From Spirodela intermedia (lineage: Eukaryota; Streptophyta; Magnoliopsida; Alismatales; Araceae): 64,000 bases of DNA. Made by a program: the position numbers and the translations under genes. The notes below the pieces were generated by a model. The model was not told where the DNA came from. It saw nothing but the letters and a program-made list of their open reading frames with translations, and did no database searches. The DNA is taken from the NCBI GenBank assembly GCA_902729315.2, contig LR746270.1:5628221-5692220 (forward strand), written 5' to 3'. Positions 3,436 through 39,440 of the stretch are shown in pieces (within the stretch, counting starts at the first letter, position 1; every line of letters starts with the position of its first letter).

Positions 3436-4610
3436 CGCCCCCCGAGACGGCCGCCGGAGTGGTCGGGGAACGACGGTGGCGCTGGCCGATTGGGCGAGCC
3501 ACCATCCCCACCAGGCCTAAACAAAGCGTCTCTGGTCACCTACTCCCGCGACGTGGGGAGGGCTCCGCCAGTCATGTAGCAGAGAAAGGAGCTCCAGTTG
3601 GCTCGAGGAAGATCCAACACATGGCATCATCCGAGAGCCACCACCGACGTTTTCTGCAACAGAGAAAATGGGATTTTCTAGGATTTTAAAAAGAAAAAGG
3701 AGGACGGTTGGTGTCAGTTTTTCCCTCCATTCAAGTAACGAATAATAAATAAAAAAAGAAAGAATAAATTGAGATTCCTTTTATCTTGAAAACCCACTTT
3801 TTTTCTGTCTCTTTCCTGCAACCCCCAAAATAGTCAAAACTTCTCTTGACTCCTACTTTCTTGGGAGACGTTACAGTCATTCGAATGCATGAAGAAACTT
3901 GCCAACGAAGAAGCTCCTAGAAAGTCAAAGAGGTGGACTTCTGAGATCTGGGATTATTTGAACAGGATGATGAGAAAACTTACCGGTTGCCGTCCCCATA
4001 AAGACAGTCAGTTCTCTATAAAAATCTTCTATTCTGGTGATTAATTTTACTTGATCGGAGTGCGTTGCTCATAAATGAGGTAATTAGAGCATTCTAGCTC
4101 ATTTCGTATAATCACATAAAAATAAAGGTAAATGGAAAATAAGCATTATCCAATACCAGAATTTGAGGACATCATAAATAAGCAGGGGGACGAACATAGC
4201 TATACCGGCCACATCATCTCGATTGTCTCGTGATGCCATTCTGCTAATAAAATAATAATAATAATAATAATTTATCAATGTATTTATCATTTTCTTTTCT
4301 TGGAATCATTGAAAAAACAGTTAATTAAAAAAAATGATGATTAAAATTTTTAAATTGTGTATGTATAGATTAAGAATGGTGCACATTGATTCCTAATGGA
4401 CTAGTTGTTGTTGGATTATTAAGCCGTTTATTGGGCCATTTCTAGAGTCAGATCCTCGTCGGAGCCGTCCCCGCAGACAAGCAGGGATACGTGTCGGGGT
4501 GGATGGCTGCTCCCGCCAGAAAGTAGTAGAGCACCGCTCCTCCCCAATCTTGCTAAAACCCTCGGGGGAAATCCCCTGGGGTGCGCTTCCTCTCTGCCAG
4601 CTGCCGCACC
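3436..4610. other. Intergenic region between divergent genes
   Basis: This separates the minus-strand hydrolase gene (start 3435) from the plus-strand plastid membrane protein gene (start 4611). It is GC-rich near 3436-3690 and 4440-4610, next to the two gene starts, and AT-rich between. An ATT/ATA-rich run lies at 4244-4275. It presumably holds both promoters. No clear TATA box was fixed. Confidence 0.4.
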
Positions 4611-8271: not shown

Positions 8272-9378
8272 TTACTTTCTGATGGGACCAGGACTCAAGA
8301 CCCTCGTTTTGAAGCAGAAATCCAGAGCCACGGCTGAGAAGAGGAAGATGAATGTGCTCTCCGAGACATGAATCGCTCCATCGGCAGCAAGCTGCAGGAA
8401 GCCGTCGATGCCACTGAATTCCCAAGCCCCCCTCCCAGCTTCGACCGTCGAGAGCCCTGCAATTTGACAGCCACGAACGGGCTTTTCAGAGGGCCTCTGC
8501 AACACATCTAGAGAAATTTGCAGAGAATGGTGGGTTACCCTTGATGAACCCGAAGGCCGCGCATGTCCCCGTCTTGAGCTGAGTGTTGTTCAGGTCCCTT
8601 CTCACAGTGTAGCGGAAGGTTACCCCGAACAGAGCGCAGCTGAGGAAGATGACTGCCAGGTGAGCCACCCACTGGGTGGTGCTGGTGGCTTGATAGGCGG
8701 AGATGGGTACGCCCGCTAGGGTTCCCACTGCGGAAGAAATCATCGCCGCCTTGATGGACTCCAGCCTCTCCAGATCCTTGTCTATTATTTCCCCACCTTC
8801 AGCTGCATCTCCCGGCGTGTTCTCCCCCATATTTGGCGAGAGGGAACGCTCTGCTTCCTCCACCATGCTCCTCGCCTCCAATAGCTCCCTCTGGGTTTCT
8901 TCAATCTGGAGAGAAGCATCGGGTCCTGATCAAATGCCGCGTGAATAAGAACAACTGTGATTCCTCTACCCATGAGGAGAAGGGAAGGTAGAAGGCGGGG
9001 GACCTCGGATTGGCGGCTCTGGAGCTGGAGGATGTACTCCTTGGCACGGGCGGCCTCGGCTTCCTGCCGCTGGATGTCGGCGAGGGCGCGGCGAGCGGCG
9101 TCCACGCGGCTGGAGGCTTCCTCCAGCCCGTCGAGGAGGGCCCGATTCTCCTCCTTCTTCAAGAGGGCCTCTACCTGCTCCCCGAGGAAGCCTCTTAGCC
9201 CGTCGCCCGTACCGGCGGCGCCGCCGCCGGAGTTGCCGCATGGGGGGCGGAGGCCGCCGCGGGATCTCAGGGGCCGCGGCGCGGCGGCGGAGGAGAAGCG
9301 CTGGAGCAGGACGGAGGCAGTGGCAGGAGAAGAGAGCACCGCCGGGAGGGACGGGACGAAGGGGCCTTGACGAAGCAT
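8272..9378 (-). CDS. Conserved plastid membrane protein with coiled-coil N-terminal half, three exons
   Basis: Minus-strand exons 9378-9004, 8905-8539 and 8456-8272 join in frame to give 308 residues. Residues 1-50 are rich in Ser, Ala, Arg and Pro (plastid transit peptide). Residues 60-170 are highly charged (EQVEALLKKEENRALLDGLE, EAARAKEYILQLQSRQSEIE) and look like a coiled coil. The C-terminal half has hydrophobic segments ISSAVGTLAGVPISAYQ, WVAHLAVIFLSCALFGVTF and FIFLFSAVALDFCF, ending LSPGPIRK. The arrangement matches an uncharacterised plant chloroplast family (I associate it with At3g61870), so its role is unknown. The first intron uses an unusual donor (GAG then GTCCCC). It is required to keep QSE-IEETQRELLEAR in frame, and other nearby GT sites break the frame. 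Family and exon 3 are well supported; the exon 1 donor is less so. Confidence 0.78.
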
Positions 9379-30262: not shown

Positions 30263-33200
30263 TCAGGCATCCGAGGCTTCAGACTGTGATTGGTCCATAA
30301 ATGGTCTAGGTAGCGGCGGTGGCTTGGACTCAGAGCCCACATAGGGGCTCCTCATTTGGGCAGCACTAGGATCTCCCTCTGCTGCTGATGACGGTCTGGG
30401 CGGCGATGACGGCTGGACCTCCACATCCGGGTATGCCGCCTTGAACCGGGCCCTCAGCCCTTCGTCAACCAGCCGGACCCCATTCAACTGGTTTCCTAGC
30501 GACAGCCAGCTGCTCAAAAAAATAAAAGTACATAGAATTATGATCGTTGATAAGCATAATGACACCAACCTAATACCTGAACAAAATAAAAAATGAACGC
30601 TTGCCCAGATTCCGGCATACCCTGCATGGGTGTTGTGCATTCGGGCGAACAATTCCAGCTTCCTTGTTCTTGGGCTGATCCTCTCCAGAAGAGGGTACAT
30701 CTGCAAATAATTACACAAGTTTTCCTCTTTATAACTCAGATTATCTGTAATAACCAAGGCCGAACTATTCTTAGCAGCTCACACTAAACTGCAATCTTCC
30801 CTAATTTCTTCCCTTTTCAAGGAGAGAAATTCGAGAAACTGTAGGCTCAAAGCTACCTCGTCAGGCTTGCGGCTGGTCTCCCGAACTTCAGCGACGATGA
30901 CATCAGTGTCGATGTTCCTGTTGATCTCCGGGTTGCCCTTTATACCAACGAGGCAGTGCTCCTTGCTGTGGTTCAGCCAATGGCCGGTGCGGCCGGTTCT
31001 AATGATCCGTTGCAGCTGATTGGTCTTCACCCAGATGATCTCCTCTACACGCTTGTATCCCCATTGCTCCAAGCTGTTTATCAGCACGTAAAAACAGAGC
31101 TTAGTCAATACTTCTTTCACAAACTCTGGCTAAATGCTGAACAAATATATCATCCACTCAGGAGTGATCGTGCCAAAGGTATACTAAAGATATGAATTCG
31201 TTAGAAAAAAAGTTAGTTTTTCATCTTGTCAAAGAGTTGAACAATGAAAATAGATGCCGATAGCCCCACAGAGATATAAACTAATCCGTATATTTTACCG
31301 CAATTAATTAATTATAGCAGGGAGATGGAAAATAAGAATTAAGAAAAAAGACTTAATTACTGCTGTCTAGGAGGATAACAATTACGAAATTGATAAATAA
31401 ATGGCAAGAATGGGCCGCACTTCCTGGTTAAATTTGTTGAACGGAATGAAGGAGAAATAACCTGGAGGAGGTACTTGTCCAAGGGCAATGGGGAGAAGGT
31501 GGTCCCCAAGCTCAAGAGAGCGCACTAACCTTGGCAAAAACGGACTTAATGACGGAAGTCTGATGTAAAGCTGGTCAATTGGAGCTCCAAATTTAGACGT
31601 TAATTTCAACAGTAATTAAGCCTTTAATCCGAGCTAGACGATCTAAGCCAAGCCTTAAATAGGGGCTTTTCACACGAATCACCAAGCTGGTGAAAAGCCC
31701 CTGATATTATTAATATGAGTACAAGAACCACTCACAATTACATAGTGTGAGAGAGCCTTAATCATGTGGAGTGTAATGGATAGGAGTACGAGGAATCATA
31801 ATGAGTGTTGTTCACGAAAAGAATATTCGTCACACTAGCAGATGAAATAGTGTGTGCATGGAAGATAAAGTTACACAGAAGGCTAGAGCTAGTAAGAGGA
31901 CCTCTAGCATCCAGTAATCTATTGCGTCCCTAGAATCTCAGACTCATTGCCATTCAAGATTTAATAATCATCCACGGATTAAAGAATCAGCCAACACCCG
32001 AGACAAACATTGGTTCTAAGATATCTTTCCAAATCAAAGAAACCCAATCGATTTTAATGCTCTATATCAAAGAATCACCCATATTTTATCAGTATATCCC
32101 AATGCTGTGAAATTCTGACGATTTATTTGGAAAAAGATGATATGCTTGCAGCTTTGTATGCACCTTTCCGACCCTGACACTCCTTCAAAGGGCGGGGCTG
32201 GAGTTTCCCCCACCCTTAATTATTTCGACTGAGCTTCCCGATGAACATAGCTGGCACAAGGTATTGCATAAAGAACAGAACTAAGCCTAAACAAGAACAA
32301 GTCAATGGAATAAATTTGGTAAGCACTAGCACTTCACCCTAGGGCATACTCTTTTGTTTTCATTAGTTGGGATCGAGAGACAACTTTAGCCCTTACCTGC
32401 GTACTTAATTTACACCAATGCTAATAGTTTATTAGACCACAGACGAGGTGACACAGATAATCTAGAACCAAGTGTATTCTTTTCCAAATTTATTATGCAT
32501 TTTAATGCGTAATTTTTATCAATGATCAGAAGCCATAAATAAAGCATCCACTACCGTCAGTTCAATACAAAGGAAGAGATAGAAAATGTGTCGGTGCAGA
32601 TGAACACAAGAAGAGCCATTAAACAATCAGTCTTACCACAAATCTCATAAAAAGTGAGGCATAAACCTCGGTAGGACTTGGAATGACCATGATTATTCAG
32701 AAATCAAAATTTTAAAATTCATCCAGTGCGCCTTTTATCCTTAGAAGACCCTTCTAATTGGAAAAAAATAAAAAGGAGAGCATTAGATAGACAATCTCAG
32801 ACCAGCCCAAATTCATCCATGTCAAATGCAGCCCAAGACCACACCCAACTCAGGTTCAGCCTGATCCAAATTACCTCATGCATTTGCCTAGCTGACCTTG
32901 TACATACACTAGTTATAAGCCAAATTGAGAGCTTATGCCTAAAGATATGCACGCATATCGCATACGAAAATATAGACCAACAGCCAAAGGAAATGTCAGG
33001 GTCAGCTCAACTGAGTCCAGTTCAATTTTTGGGGGCTTGATGATTCTTCAAACCAGGGCAAGCCATTCACGCAGAAGCTCGCTCCAAAAGTGTTATACGT
33101 AAAATAAATGCGTTGTTCAACGAAAATGACTTGACTCACATGTAGAAACAGTATCATTGAATTGGTAGCAAATAACTTGATGAGCAAAGAAAGGGGGGGA

Positions 33201-36200
33201 GGTAACAAAGATGACTATCAGCAAAAATAAGCATGCTCAAGGAAAGACAGATGAACATGAACACATACCATTCACGCCCTAGTTCCATTGCCCGTCCAGT
33301 GACCCAGAGAAAAATTAGACCATCGGTCTGTAATGCAGGAACGTTCAGATTTCTCATCTCATCATCAGCCATAGTTCCATAAGGTAACTCCATATGAATG
33401 TCCCAAGGTGGATCTGCCATGATGACTCCAAATTGTCCGATGATGTCCATTCTAAATGAACGGATATCGCAATTAATCCACTGTGGTTCGCCAAGTTCCA
33501 CTTCTGAACAATATTCTGCCCTCTGTGTCTTCATTGGTTTTGGAGGAGCCATACTTACAGCTCCCATCATCAGTGGAGACACATCAGGTGTAGGATCAAG
33601 CTCATAATGAACATACTTGCATGTCTGTAACAATCACGAACATCAACACCGTATCAAATGCAGAACAACTACGCGGCAAAAAAAGATAACCTTTGTGCCC
33701 GGCAGTGACACAATGTAAGGTGCAGAAGAACTGCACAGAACAATGAATTACCTTCATGTGTCGACAAGTGTCCAGGAATGAGCAGTCGCCTAAATTTGTG
33801 TCCGTATGTGGAGCAATTATCCGACGGAAGTGCACCTTAAGAAAAAAGTTGTTTCAAGGCCAACTGAGCAAAGTCAAACATTCACATGCGAAACTGGGAC
33901 CATTTGATAATGTATTATTGGTCACACTTGACCCTCACACGTGCTAAGGTGTCTAAATATCATGATGTTGATCCCCCATAGCTTTCAGTTAACTTTATTG
34001 CTAGCGAGAAGGTAACTCTTAAAAAGCATTGGCAAGTACAATACTTGTAGATGTGAAAGTGTTGTCCAACAAAATTAAAATCATTTCAAGGATTTGCCCA
34101 AGATGAATGAGAACTTGGATGATAAATAAATGTCATGTTTGGCACATGGTTCTAGCTATGAAACAAGAGGTGGCGAGGTCAATATGATGGGAATAATCAG
34201 CATCAAACCATTAAAACTAACCTTCTCGCATGCTATGTATGAGCCAGACTGACGTCGGCAATCTTCCTTCGTTAAGTTTGAACAATATTCTTTCAGCTGA
34301 GAGCCACCTTTTGTCTTGAACTGTAACGCACAGCAATAGTAGCAATACAAACTGGCATATATCAGGAAAAGTTGTAGGAGAAAGGCAAAAATTGAAAAGA
34401 TAATTTCAAACAAATAAAAGTACGAGTAAATCAATCACACATCTTGAAGATGTTGATATTTTCAGAAGCACAAAGATTCCAGATTTTAAAACAAAGTGGT
34501 AATAGTGGGATGGGAGGAATGCCCACATGCCAATGTGACTATTGCAAACAGTTGCACGGGCCTACCAGAGATTGATCTTTTATACCGATCCAAAGAAGAC
34601 TAGAATCATCAATTGCAGGGCGGCGGTCAGATTCTAACTGGGTAAGGATGAGTAAGAATCCCAAAACTGTAGGTTCCTTTTCTCTCGAATGATATCCACG
34701 TTTTCACTCCCAGTGGAGTGTTCATGATAAGACCATTCAATCAAAGATAGAATAATACCAACAAACACTCGATTTACACAAGTTATCAAGTCATCTGAGT
34801 AACATAAATTCGTGCCTACAGGTCACTGAACCAAACGAATAATTTGTAGCAGGACAAAATAACTCAGCGCAAAACCCAAGATAATGCTTACCTGATGCAT
34901 GAGATCTATAAAAAAAAATGTTATGTACAGTTCAGTTCAAAATTTTCTATTGAATAATCAAAGAAAGCTAATGCACAAAACAATAGCCAATACGATTAAA
35001 TAGAATAAAACAACAAAAATCACAAGCATGTGGTGTGGGTTTTCTGAAGAGAAAATTTTCTATCAGCAGCCTTCATATTTCTATATCAAAAATCTGAGAA
35101 AAAAAAAGCATGATATAGGAATGTAGTTAATTTAATATGAAAATTTTGATTGAAATCCAGGGAAAAATCATACTCCACCTTCCTCACCTTAGTCACTTTA
35201 GCAACTAAGATCCAGAGGGATCTGCCAGGAGCCACATAATCAGGTGGAATCAACACTTTTATGTCCAAAAGGTTTCCCCAATTTGGCCAGATATGGAAAA
35301 TCTAGGACAACCTGCTCTAGCTCGAGACTGGAATCCAAAATAAACAATTCAACAGCACTATGTGATTTCGAATTCTTTGTTGCGTTTTACTGACAGGTTG
35401 GGTTACCCAAGCCATGCAAAAAAATATATGAGAATCCCAAATGGAATACACAGAAAAGCTTCAATCTTTATTGAATTGAAAGCTTCTACACAAAGCTGCA
35501 ACTTCACACAGAGAAGAAGGCCAAAACTGTAGGACAGCAAAGTCTGATTGCTTCCCTAAGAACTCCAGAGCCTAGTGCTTGGCACGATGTGAAACATAAA
35601 TAAAGGGCTACCCGAGAAAATGTACCAAAGTCAACGCATATATCAGGATAAAACACGACAAGACAAGCTTTCCAGGATAACATCCCATGTGACCAAGTGA
35701 ACACATGTGACAAGCCTGAAATCATCAAAAACATGCGGGAAATCGAACAGAAGAACATAATTCACACAGATTTACAAAGGGTTTCCAGACCTTTGCTGCG
35801 ACTGCAGTCTCCTTTGCTGTAGGCCGGTGGATTAGATCCAACAGCTCTTCTCCAGTCTTCGATTTCTGCAACTCCATGAATGACTTCCTGCTAAGAAGAG
35901 CTTCAAGATCCTTGAGATCGTCCTCTTCCGTACTCTTTTGAGGAAGCAGACTGGGACCACCCATCCCAGGTGGAGGGGCGAGAGGAGGCCGGTGGAGAGG
36001 GGGAACACCAATCCCCCTGGGGATCCCCATGAGCCCCATGACTCCCCTCGGGCCACCTCTCGGCCCCAGCATAGAACCCGGTCCTCCAGCTCCAGGAAAA
36101 ATGGGAGGCAAGCCCGAAAGATGAGGATCGACAGGCCCCAGCCACATCTCTGGATGCGGCGGCCTCGGCATCAGAGCTGCAGTAGAGGCATCAACTGCGG

Positions 36201-37014
36201 CCATGCCTCCAGAGTGATTCGGCATGTTACCATCCGCAGGAGTGGGCTCAGACGTCGACTGATTCAGCTGAGCAGTCTCCGGCAATTCTTTGAGAAGGCG
36301 GCTGCGGTCGATTCCCATGACCATCAGTCTCGCCTTCCCGCTGACCACGAACTCTTCCAAATCCACGCCTCCGTTGGCTTCAGCTATACACCGCATCGCC
36401 CTCTCAACAGCGGATATAGCGCCGTCCTCACCACCAAGCTCATTCAGAGCCTCCTTCTCCGCGGGTGAGGCTGAGGACTGGTCGCCCTCCAGCTTCCTGA
36501 GGACCGCGGCGGAATCAATTGCGGTGAAGGGGACTCTCTCCAGGAGGCAAACGGCCACCATTGTGCGCACCACCGCCAGCCGGTCGCCCGCGCCTCCCTC
36601 GACGATGAGGGAGGATCTCTCCCCGCGAGACCGCTGCGACTGCTGCCCATCGTCACCGGATCGCTTCGCCCGCGTCCTGGGAAAGGGAGAGTGGGGCTCC
36701 GGGTGAAGGCGGCGGCGAGGGTTTGCAGAACCAGCGTCCACCGGGGGCCGAGAGGTTGGTACAGGGACGGGATTCGGCCTCGTCGTGGGAACAAAAGGGC
36801 GACGGTTTACAGCAGCGATGAGGCGGAGGAAGATGTCGAGGGAGGAGACGAGGTCGGGGACGAGCGGCTGGATGGAGGAGATGAGATCCTCCTGGGCAAC
36901 GCGGCGAGCCTCGATGCGTTCCTCCAGCTGCTGCCGCATCACCTTCAGCGTGGCCAAGTCCTCCCCTCCTACTCCGCCGCCGTCTGCGACGGTGGCGGAC
37001 GGCTGTGACTCCAT
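30263..37014 (-). CDS. MTA: MTA (METTL3-like) mRNA N6-adenosine methyltransferase, seven exons
   Basis: Minus-strand exons 37014-35791, 34320-34222, 33835-33752, 33624-33269, 31073-30857, 30700-30621 and 30509-30263 join in frame to 768 residues, slightly longer than Arabidopsis MTA (about 685). The N-terminal 408 residues (exon 1) are charged, then Pro/Gly-rich with low-complexity [12 protein letters not shown] Cys/His-rich region follows ([12 protein letters not shown], then [19 protein letters not shown]). The MT-A70 domain starts near 500. Its catalytic DPPW is at 540-543, within [20 protein letters not shown], and [20 protein letters not shown] follows. The C-terminal tail is Ser/Pro-rich. 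MTA with MTB writes m6A on nuclear pre-mRNA using S-adenosylmethionine. Intron 4 is long (2.2 kb). All splice sites are GT..AG; the exon 1 donor (AAG then GTCTGG) is weak. Its 5' end faces the telomerase-RNA candidate across about 870 bases. Confidence 0.96.
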
Positions 37015-37885
37015 GACGACGGCAACGAGCGACCAAAGGCCTCAGCTTCCGGGAGTCGCCGTCTCGTTTTATTCACCGCAGAGTCGGCGGCGGGGCGGCG
37101 ACGGTGGGATCGGCGAGTGTTTCTTCGAAAAACCCAACTGATTTCACAAATAATTACATTTTTCCCACTCAAATCAAACACCATTTCTACTCTGCTACGA
37201 AGAAATCGGCCTGATTAATTATTTTTTAAAAACCTGGGTTTTCGTTTTATGATCTTATAATCGCCCATTTCGAAAAAAAATACTTTTTGAAAGGAAAATC
37301 CAAATCCATCTATGTATTTTCCAGCGCCTCCTCGTTGATTTTTTTTCCCAAAAATGTTAAATTAATTCAACTTAAAAATTAAAAATTATAAAACTACACG
37401 AAAAATATTTAAAAGAAAAAAAAATAATTCAAGAAGCTCAAGCTACTGCTTCCAAGCTCGAAAGTAGAGGCTTTGCCTCGTTCAAGGATTCATCCCACGC
37501 TTTCAAAACCAGGCAAAAATGCAACTTTTATCGACTCTCTCCCATCCGTGTTAAACCCTGAGAGCCCCATCAAGTCAAACCCAGAAACCAAAGATTTTTT
37601 ACCCAGAACATCAACGGTCAAGCATGTCCGGCAACTCACAGTATCCTCTTAAATAATCAGAGGGCAGACCTGGCGATGATCCATCATCGTCAAGTTGCAC
37701 GCCCTACTTCTCCCTCCCCTCTCTCTCACTCGCTCCATGGAGTTCAAATGCGGCGGGCAAGAGAGAGTAAAGTCAAAGGGGCGCCCATATGAGTGGAGGA
37801 TTGAGATGGGGGCGGGGGGGGGCGTGTATGCTACTGGTTGAGGGGTTAACGAAGATGTAAGGAGGTTGCTGAGTGAGTTGACCAA
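37015..37885. other. Bidirectional intergenic region between MTA and the telomerase RNA candidate
   Basis: The first 120 bases are GC-rich (MTA 5' UTR and promoter side), then AT-rich, then GC-mixed from 37640. No coding region is recognisable. The open frame at 37649-37909 overlaps the USE and is not believed. Confidence 0.45.
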
Positions 37886-37896
37886 ATCCCACATCG
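37886..37896 (+). promoter_or_regulatory. Upstream sequence element (USE) of plant snRNA-type genes
   Basis: The sequence ATCCCACATCG matches the plant USE consensus RTCCCACATCG at all 11 positions. USEs drive U-snRNA and other small non-coding RNA genes. I saw no other exact copy in the window on either strand. Confidence 0.85.
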
Positions 37897-37923
37897 GTAA
37901 ATCTTTCAAGTGAGATATGGTTC

Positions 37924-37931
37924 ATATGTAT
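37924..37931 (+). promoter_or_regulatory. TATA-like box at Pol III spacing
   Basis: ATATGTAT begins 28 bases after the USE ends. In plants this short (about three helical turns) USE-TATA spacing specifies RNA polymerase III; Pol II snRNA genes have about ten bases more. The box is imperfect. It predicts transcription starting near 37950-37957. Confidence 0.6.
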
Positions 37932-38016
37932 TCGGTACAATAATTTGGCAATCTTCCAGGGGTCGAGTGGGGTTGAGAGGACAGCTGCTCAGACACCCGC
38001 TAACCGGGTAGTCCGA

Positions 38017-38029
38017 TAAACCCTAAACC
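38017..38029 (+). other. Telomere-complementary template of the TR candidate
   Basis: TAAACCCTAAACC is 13 bases of perfect complement to (TTTAGGG)n, long enough for alignment plus one repeat of synthesis. It lies about 64 bases from the inferred 5' end, on the strand set by the USE. Confidence 0.75.
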
Positions 38030-38243
38030 TGACTCTGTTGAGGTCTTCGCCCCACATTCTCACTGAGAAGTGGTGGGTTGGGGGTTGTTTACCCGGCGTT
38101 TAAACTCCCTCCCCACGTTGAGATATATACAAACGCCGATGCCCGCGGCTGCTCCTCTCATCGATTATATTGGCACCACGGGAGCGCTCGCAGGGGGCGG
38201 CGCCGCCAGGTTAGCCGAGGTCCCTCGCCCTCCCAAACCCCTG

Positions 38244-38249
38244 TTTTTT
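38244..38249 (+). terminator. T6 Pol III terminator of the TR candidate
   Basis: Six Ts follow immediately after the 3' strand of the closing stem (ends 38243). No run of four or more Ts lies between the inferred start and this point. Confidence 0.7.
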
Positions 38250-39440
38250 CTTCAACACCGGACTTCCCCGGCACGGCCCCTGCGAGTGAGTGGGCTCTCT
38301 CTCTCTCCCCTTCCGCAGGCTCTCGTTAATGGTGGATTGAAGATGGGTCGCTTTGCATGGTCAAAACCCTCATCCCGCTTGGTCTCCAGGGCAAGAGTTG
38401 GGTCCTGTGATATCAGCCAGGCTCTCGTTTTCTGTTTATTCAAAGATATTTTCAAATCACACGGCTTTGACCTGGCTCCATCTCAGCCTATGATTCATAT
38501 ACTCCTGGCTTAAACATATCATCAATATCATTGATGAGATGACTCCGCCGCAATCTGCAAAATATCATCTCAGCCTCTGCTTTCATCACAAAACCTACCC
38601 CACATCAAGAGCAATAGCCTATGCTTATATAGATATAGATATATATATATATATATCTATATATATGTGGTGAATCCGTTGGTGGGTAGCAGGATTCAAA
38701 AAAAAAAGAAGAAAGAAATGACTTTTAGCCTGTGGGTATTTAAAACAAAATTATCAGAAAATAAAATTAGACCCTGTCTTCTAAGCCTGCCGTTGGAGGG
38801 GAGGGGGAGAGACTGACCGCAAGAGATTAGGGCAGAAGCACTGAAGCTTGATCATGTTCTAATGGATTCCAAGAGGAACCTGTTGACTATTCCAATAAAA
38901 GCTGTTAATTTTAGCAATGACTATAAGCTAATCACTAAATACAGCAATCTGGGCGATTAAAGGGGGGAAATAGGATGTCTCCTCCATCTCCAAACGACCT
39001 GAAGCTTCCATCAGACACCATCAACCCACGGCGATGGCATGGGAGTCGAACAAGAAGCAAGTTTGCAAAAAGCTAGTATGAATCTAGACAAGGTAACCCG
39101 AGCCTCCAAGATACCCATTCCATGGATTGACAGCAAAAATTATTCTATGTTTCAAAAGTGCGCCGCTAGATGTGCACGGTGCAGGCAACGAGAAGCAGGT
39201 GGGTGGAAAGGAAAGAAAATGGCAGGAAGCCAGGCTCTCTGACGTTGACATTCCAAGAATTCCTAGCAGGCCCTTCACGCAGATGCAGCTCCGGACCATG
39301 AACAGACTGACAGCACGCATCTGGAAGACGAATCCCAGCCCTGTTTGTTAGGTACGAAGATTGAAGTAATAAATTTTTTTTGGAGCTCAGAGCTTGGAAC
39401 ATGTTCATCACCTCGTAAAGGGAAGATAGACAGCTGCCAG
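38250..39440. other. Intergenic region and 3' UTR of the RRM gene
   Basis: This holds a TA-rich palindromic microsatellite at 38629-38670 and otherwise unremarkable DNA. The part below 39441 should carry the RRM gene 3' UTR. Open frames at 39039-39490 on both strands show no family resemblance. Confidence 0.4.
38629..38670. repeat. (TA)n-rich palindromic microsatellite
   Basis: TA dinucleotides with GATATAGATATA on the left and ATCTATATATAT on the right, so the whole run can cruciform. Confidence 0.85.

What the first reader, a model, noticed from the sequence alone, without database searches (positions are those of the whole stretch)
37886..38249. Unannotated telomerase RNA gene candidate
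Seen directly: an 11/11 match to the plant snRNA USE; a TATA-like box 28 bases after it; a 13-nt TAAACCCTAAACC; a T6 run at 38244; perfect pairing of 37957-37963 with 38237-38243 directly before the T run; a second pairing 37975-37982 with 38220-38226. Known: plant telomerase RNAs are Pol III transcripts with USE and TATA, about 250-300 nt long, with a template complementary to TTTAGGG and a closing P1 stem. Independent features (promoter, template, end pairing, terminator) fall in the right order, strand and spacing. Inference: this locus encodes the telomerase RNA of this plant.
Basis: partly seen in the sequence, partly recalled or inferred. Interest (0 to 1): 0.95.

Follow-up and report, generated by a model that had tools for sequence, protein, structure and literature searches.

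The report
Duckweed telomerase RNA gene
This stretch of a duckweed chromosome very probably encodes the RNA that telomerase copies to rebuild chromosome ends: a real gene of a known kind, found here from raw sequence.

Summary
The finding holds. The genome is very probably Spirodela intermedia clone 8410. Window 37886-38249 (+) carries an exact USE, a weak TATA-like block, a 13-nt telomere template and a T6 run. The stand-alone 13-nt template occurs 28 times in the genome. Only this one has a USE upstream; the other 27 reach at most 8 of 11 USE positions within 220 nt. The locus is single copy, TERT is encoded, and 7 of 20 contig ends fetched carry TTTAGGG arrays. The predicted fold gives the telomerase-RNA core: a hairpin just before the template, a 15-bp enclosing P1 and a possible P2/P3 pseudoknot with U tracts. 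These are rare in shuffles, though the criteria were set after seeing the sequence. Not tested: expression, TERT binding, covariation, earlier annotation. It is a new member of a known family, of modest interest.

The parts
37886..37896 (+). Upstream sequence element (USE), ATCCCACATCG
   Evidence: Exact match. Same element at -62 or -63 in the USE-bearing U6, U3 and SRP RNA genes of this genome.
37923..37932 (+). TATA-like block CATATGTATT, weak
   Evidence: TATG 28 nt after the USE; U6/U3/SRP RNA genes 23-29, U2/U5 genes 29-33.
37948..38249 (+). Predicted transcript, about 300 nt (start inferred, end within the T run)
   Evidence: USE-to-start distance of 62-63 in U6/U3/SRP RNA genes; longest internal T run 3.
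37957..37963 (+). 5' strand of the outer terminal stem
   Evidence: Pairs with 38237-38243, probability 0.97.
37974..37988 (+). 5' strand of the core-enclosing P1-like helix (8 + 7 bp)
   Evidence: Pairs with 38145-38160, probability 0.96-0.98.
37992..38013 (+). Hairpin just 5' of the template, proposed template boundary element
   Evidence: 8 bp, probability 0.98-0.99; two further pairs (37989-37990/38015-38016) at 0.54.
38017..38029 (+). Template UAAACCCUAAACC
   Evidence: Fits TTTAGGG arrays at contig ends. One of 28 stand-alone copies in the genome.
38052..38073 (+). Extra hairpin between template and pseudoknot
   Evidence: 9 bp, probability 0.94-0.98.
38080..38109 (+). P2-like stem 38080-38086/38103-38109
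   Evidence: 7 bp, found by stem listing and pseudoknot scan; not part of the nested MFE fold.
38094..38138 (+). P3-like stem 38094-38101/38131-38138, crossing P2, with UUU:AAA at its inner end
   Evidence: 8 bp, probability 0.95; U-tract pseudoknot in 3 of 393,639 shuffles.
38145..38160 (+). 3' strand of the core-enclosing P1-like helix (one bulged base)
38172..38216 (+). 3' stem with several short helices, possible P4/P5/P6
   Evidence: Probability 0.52-0.63 only.
38237..38243 (+). 3' strand of the outer terminal stem
38244..38249 (+). T6 run, proposed Pol III terminator
   Evidence: U6 and SRP RNA genes of this genome also end in T runs.

Best explanation
The locus is the telomerase RNA gene of this duckweed, with no second copy found. 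A type 3 promoter (USE plus TATA) drives a transcript of about 300 nt from about 37948 to the T6 run at 38244, most likely made by RNA polymerase III. The RNA folds into a core enclosed by P1. Inside it the 13-nt template is bounded on its 5' side by a hairpin that stops copying, and is followed by a P2/P3 pseudoknot that TERT would grip; a 3' stem would give a second contact. TERT copies the template into TTTAGGG repeats. Shown here: sequence features, uniqueness, matching telomere repeat, a TERT gene, a predicted fold. Inferred: transcription, the polymerase, the pseudoknot and triple helix in the real RNA, TERT binding and templating.
For: Only 1 of 28 stand-alone template sites in the genome has a USE upstream. 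No second copy. TERT RNA-binding domain encoded once. TTTAGGG arrays at 7 of 20 contig ends fetched. USE identical to that of U6 and U3 genes here. No internal T run above 3 and a final T6. P1, boundary hairpin and P3 each at pair probability 0.95 or more. P1, boundary hairpin and pseudoknot together in 24 of 154,214 shuffles, with the terminal stem in 0. U-tract pseudoknot in 3 of 393,639 shuffles. Length near 300 nt, within the 234-390 bp quoted for plant telomerase RNAs (PMC12169523, section read).
Against: No expression, binding or comparative data. Rfam gives no match. The TATA-like block is poor and its spacing lies near the border of the Pol III and Pol II groups. In the nested fold most of the template is paired with 38075-38086 (0.73-0.77). 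The P4/P5/P6 part is uncertain. Total folding energy is only slightly better than shuffles (z -1.62). Three other places in the window reach the same three fold scores. Two AtR8 primer stretches show no significant similarity. Fold criteria were set after seeing the sequence.
Confidence: 0.93

Rival explanations
1. A telomere-like motif (telo-box) of a promoter or leader lies by chance downstream of a USE-like sequence, and there is no RNA gene.
For: The USE is frequent here: 1309 sites against 42 for the reversed pattern. AAACCCTAA occurs 3 times in the window. PMC6765143 says such motifs often occur in promoters (passage). Three other places in the window reach the same three fold scores.
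Against: About 0.03 coincidences of USE and template expected in the genome, one seen (my arithmetic). The terminator and four stems come on top.
Confidence: 0.04
2. A different USE-driven small RNA (snRNA-like or another Pol III RNA) whose telomere-like stretch has no template function.
For: The same promoter type drives U6, U3, SRP RNA, U2 and U5 genes here.
Against: No Rfam family matches. The order of boundary hairpin, template, pseudoknot and enclosing stem is that of telomerase RNAs (PMC9841428, passage).
Confidence: 0.02
3. A decayed or silent paralogue, the working telomerase RNA being elsewhere in the genome.
For: Telomerase RNA duplication and loss of copies occur in Mimulus (PMC12169523, abstract and sections read). 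My census used one template form only, and 7 of 20 contig ends fetched are wholly or mostly N.
Against: No second copy by DNA search at E up to 10. USE, template, stems and terminator are all intact here.
Confidence: 0.01

Closest known systems
Land-plant telomerase RNAs (AtTR/AtR8 of Arabidopsis, AcTR of onion and orthologues; PMC6765143, PMC12133305)
   Same: USE, TATA, terminator; G-rich 5' part, template and C-rich part in the same order; boundary element, P1, pseudoknot; length in the plant range.
   Different: Unbroken template match of 13 nt against the 9-nt CTAAACCCT named for Arabidopsis; about 300 nt against 262 for AtTR; no significant similarity to two AtR8 primer stretches; no alignment with a full relative was possible.
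Ciliate and vertebrate telomerase RNAs
   Same: Template, boundary element and pseudoknot in this order; U tracts as in the human pseudoknot (that detail recalled).
   Different: No Rfam telomerase family matches; vertebrate telomerase RNAs are H/ACA RNAs made by Pol II (PMC12133305, section read).
Other USE-driven RNA genes of this genome (U6, U3, SRP RNA)
   Same: Same USE and a similar USE-TATA spacing; U6 and SRP RNA also end in T runs.
   Different: Transcribed part unrelated: no Rfam match at the locus.

Membership tests
Land-plant telomerase RNA | Template complementary to the species' telomere repeat, longer than one repeat | tested here: met
   13-nt template; TTTAGGG arrays at 7 of 20 contig ends fetched.
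Land-plant telomerase RNA | Type 3 promoter: USE plus TATA at a set spacing | tested here: met
   USE 11 of 11; TATA-like block weak, spacing 28 (Pol III group 23-29, Pol II group 29-33).
Land-plant telomerase RNA | Made by RNA polymerase III, T-run terminator | tested here: inconclusive
   T6 end and no internal T run above 3; the polymerase itself cannot be tested.
Land-plant telomerase RNA | Core enclosed by a P1 stem | tested here: met
   37974-37988/38145-38160, probability 0.96-0.98; prediction only.
Land-plant telomerase RNA | Template boundary element 5' of the template | tested here: met
   Hairpin 37992-38013; prediction only.
Land-plant telomerase RNA | P2/P3 pseudoknot 3' of the template | tested here: met
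   Crossing stems 38080-38086/38103-38109 and 38094-38101/38131-38138; the P2 stem is not in the nested fold.
Land-plant telomerase RNA | 3' stem P4/P5/P6 | tested here: inconclusive
   38172-38216, probability 0.52-0.63.
Land-plant telomerase RNA | Sequence or covariance-model homology to known plant telomerase RNAs | tested here: inconclusive
   Rfam no match; two AtR8 primer stretches not significant; no alignment of plant telomerase RNAs was at hand.
Land-plant telomerase RNA | Binds TERT and templates telomere synthesis | not testable with these tools
   A TERT gene is present; no biochemistry possible.

The most novel reading that the evidence does not exclude
A telomerase RNA with an unusually long unbroken template (13 nt, nearly two repeats, against 9 nt named for Arabidopsis) and a pseudoknot whose U-rich loop faces a U3:A3 tract, that is, a human-like triple helix in a monocot of the order Alismatales. 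Duckweed telomerase would then align and shift its primer differently from the Arabidopsis enzyme.
Probability: 0.25. Interest if true: 0.45.

Novelty: new member of a known kind. Interest (0 to 1): 0.36.

Why it matters
It gives a testable telomerase RNA for a duckweed that propagates mainly asexually (PMC7645714, abstract start), where telomere upkeep over very many clonal generations is a fair question. It also shows that a census of template and USE plus a core-fold check can point to one locus in 136 Mb with no known sequence as query. It changes no general picture: telomerase RNAs were reported in all representative plant orders but Zingiberales (PMC6765143, figure legend).

Tried and rejected
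Rfam over the window at gathering score, and over 37600-38500 at E up to 10: nothing meaningful (the six weak hits include no telomerase family). Similarity to two AtR8 primer stretches: 555 and 130 of 1000 shuffles score as well. A protein-coding reading: four ATG ORFs of 30 aa or more overlap 37880-38260, the longest 124 aa (38139-38513, +), crossing the T run; not pursued. The USE as evidence by itself: rejected. Total folding energy: weak. Print check for this species: 'Spirodela intermedia' + 'telomerase' gave 1 paper, on a meiotic complex (listing and abstract start only); 'Lemnaceae' + 'telomerase RNA' gave 0; both in the held open-licence library only.

Full report
Where it is. The window is contig C7:5628221-5692220 of a 136,496,439-base genome in 32 contigs. 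The size and the largest contig I saw (13,401,826 bases; not every contig was seen) match the published assembly of Spirodela intermedia clone 8410 (136.6 Mb, largest scaffold 13.4 Mb; PMC7645714, passages). The organism is therefore very probably that duckweed; this rests on size alone.

How strong the parts are alone. The USE alone is weak: RTCCCAYATCG occurs 1309 times in the genome (643 + 666) against 42 for the reversed pattern, and 17 of the 30 sites fetched belong to one dispersed repeat. The template is rarer: as a stand-alone 13-mer with a base other than C on both sides, so not part of a regular telomere array, it occurs 28 times. I fetched the other 27 sites with 220 nt upstream of each. 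The best USE score is 8 of 11 or less in 27 of 27; the candidate has 11 of 11. By my arithmetic about 0.03 exact coincidences are expected. Other template forms were not counted, and the direct gapped search did not complete (14 attempts).

Promoter, calibrated in the same genome. A USE of at least 9 of 11 within 120 nt upstream was found in 2 of 10 U6 matches (both at -62), 1 of 4 U3 matches (-63), 2 of 2 SRP RNA matches (-63), 5 of 10 U2 matches (4 at -74 to -77; the fifth, L018, at -42 of a match that does not begin at a true gene start) and 7 of 9 U5 matches (-78 to -80). U6, U3 and SRP RNA are Pol III genes and U2 and U5 Pol II genes in plants (recalled). The first TATA-like base near the expected place lies 23-29 nt after the USE in the first group and 29-33 in the second; the candidate's lies at 28, with other TATG/TATT at 19 and 32. 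This fits Pol III but is close to the border, and CATATGTATT is a poor TATA box. Mimulus telomerase RNA genes have TATA 28-30 bp after TCCCACAT (PMC12169523, section read), which the candidate matches. A distance of 62-63 from USE to start puts the start at 37948-37949, and 37948 is G. The longest T run inside is 3 and the transcript would end in T6.

Partners. The genome has one match to the telomerase RNA-binding domain of TERT (PF12009, E 1.4e-29). Of 20 contig ends fetched, 7 carry TTTAGGG arrays (41 to 294 overlapping double repeats; two of the seven, the ends of C1 and C6, are identical), 7 are wholly or mostly N, and 6 have no array (0 to 4 double repeats). A DNA search of the genome with 37880-38255 finds only itself at E up to 10.

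Fold. The MFE fold of 37947-38246 (helices with probabilities) has an outer stem 37957-37963/38237-38243 (0.97); a 15-bp helix 37974-37988/38145-38160 with one bulge (0.96-0.98) that encloses template and pseudoknot region; an 8-bp hairpin 37992-38013 (0.98-0.99) ending 3 nt before the template, with two more pairs reaching the template's edge at 0.54; and an extra hairpin 38052-38073 (0.94-0.98). Stem 38094-38101/38131-38138 (0.95) can be crossed by 38080-38086/38103-38109, giving an H-type pseudoknot. Boundary element, template, pseudoknot and a closing long-range stem are the described core of telomerase RNAs (PMC9841428, passage; for plants PMC12133305, section read).

Controls on the fold. 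In 154,214 dinucleotide shuffles with the template kept in place, a P1 as strong was reached 5,170 times, the boundary hairpin 6,946, the pseudoknot 19,767 and the terminal stem 3,146; the first three together 24 times, all four never. A first run of 300 shuffles gave 9, 15 and 30, and 0 for the three together. Over 63,700 placements in the window (every second position, both strands) 16 reach the three scores, in 4 clusters: the candidate and three others, at 37003-37009 (+), 9206-9214 (-) and 3470-3476 (-). Fold strength alone therefore does not single it out. A further trait is UUU in the first pseudoknot loop with three U-A pairs at the inner end of P3, modelled on the human pseudoknot triple helix as I recall it (that a triple helix exists there: PMC8480181, passage). 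With a pseudoknot as strong it occurs in 3 of 393,639 shuffles, and in 0 of the 5 placements checked from the three other clusters. All these criteria were set after seeing the sequence.

Against. Rfam release 15 gives no match over the window at gathering score and six weak hits, none a telomerase family, over 37600-38500 at E up to 10. Two AtR8 primer stretches do not align significantly: 555 and 130 of 1000 shuffles, and 290 of 1050 and 79 of 902 window tiles, score as well. In the nested fold most of the template pairs with 38075-38086 (0.73-0.77), which would have to open when the pseudoknot forms; a mostly closed template state is reported for a moss telomerase RNA (PMC12133305, section read). 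The P4/P5/P6 part is uncertain (0.52-0.63). Total folding energy is only slightly below shuffles (z -1.62; 11 of 200 fold as well). No expression or comparative data were at hand.

Known or new. Telomerase RNAs of this plan are known across land plants (75 candidates; PMC6765143, passages). Whether this species' gene has been listed before I could not see: supplements were closed, and the searches cover open-licence papers only. I file it as a new member of a known kind, confidence 0.93.

Noticed in passing
L062, L063, L065, L066, L070, L071, L073, L075-L082, L086, L087: 17 of the 30 USE sites fetched lie in one dispersed repeat, mostly 80-89% identical, often about 1.6 kb long (some copies longer), which carries a USE and a TATA-like block about 470 bases before one end. 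It may explain why the USE is about 30 times commoner in this genome than its reversed control. Nature of the repeat not determined.
   Followed up: partly
L004-L010: Seven U6 copies over the Rfam cut-off lack a USE; 6 of the 7 are flanked by exact direct repeats of 8-17 bases, as retroposed copies would be.
   Followed up: partly
L049-L051 (G000:C11:6136773-6160424): Three U5 genes with the same score and the same upstream sequence stand 11,766 bases apart, which suggests a tandem repeat of about 11.8 kb.
   Followed up: no
L057, L058 (G000:C10:6466838-6467806): Two SRP RNA genes with the same promoter stand tail to tail, about 355 bases apart.
   Followed up: no
L030 and L035 (ends of C1 and C6): The last 3,000 bases of contigs C1 and C6, nearly all telomere repeat, are identical letter for letter: a recent exchange or an assembly effect.
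   Followed up: no
window 33154-37041 (-): An MT-A70 methyltransferase exon (33154-33633) and an ORF of 438 aa (35725-37041, no Pfam hit; it looks like the N-terminal part of the m6A methyltransferase MTA, recalled) run divergently from the candidate, a useful anchor for synteny tests.
   Followed up: no
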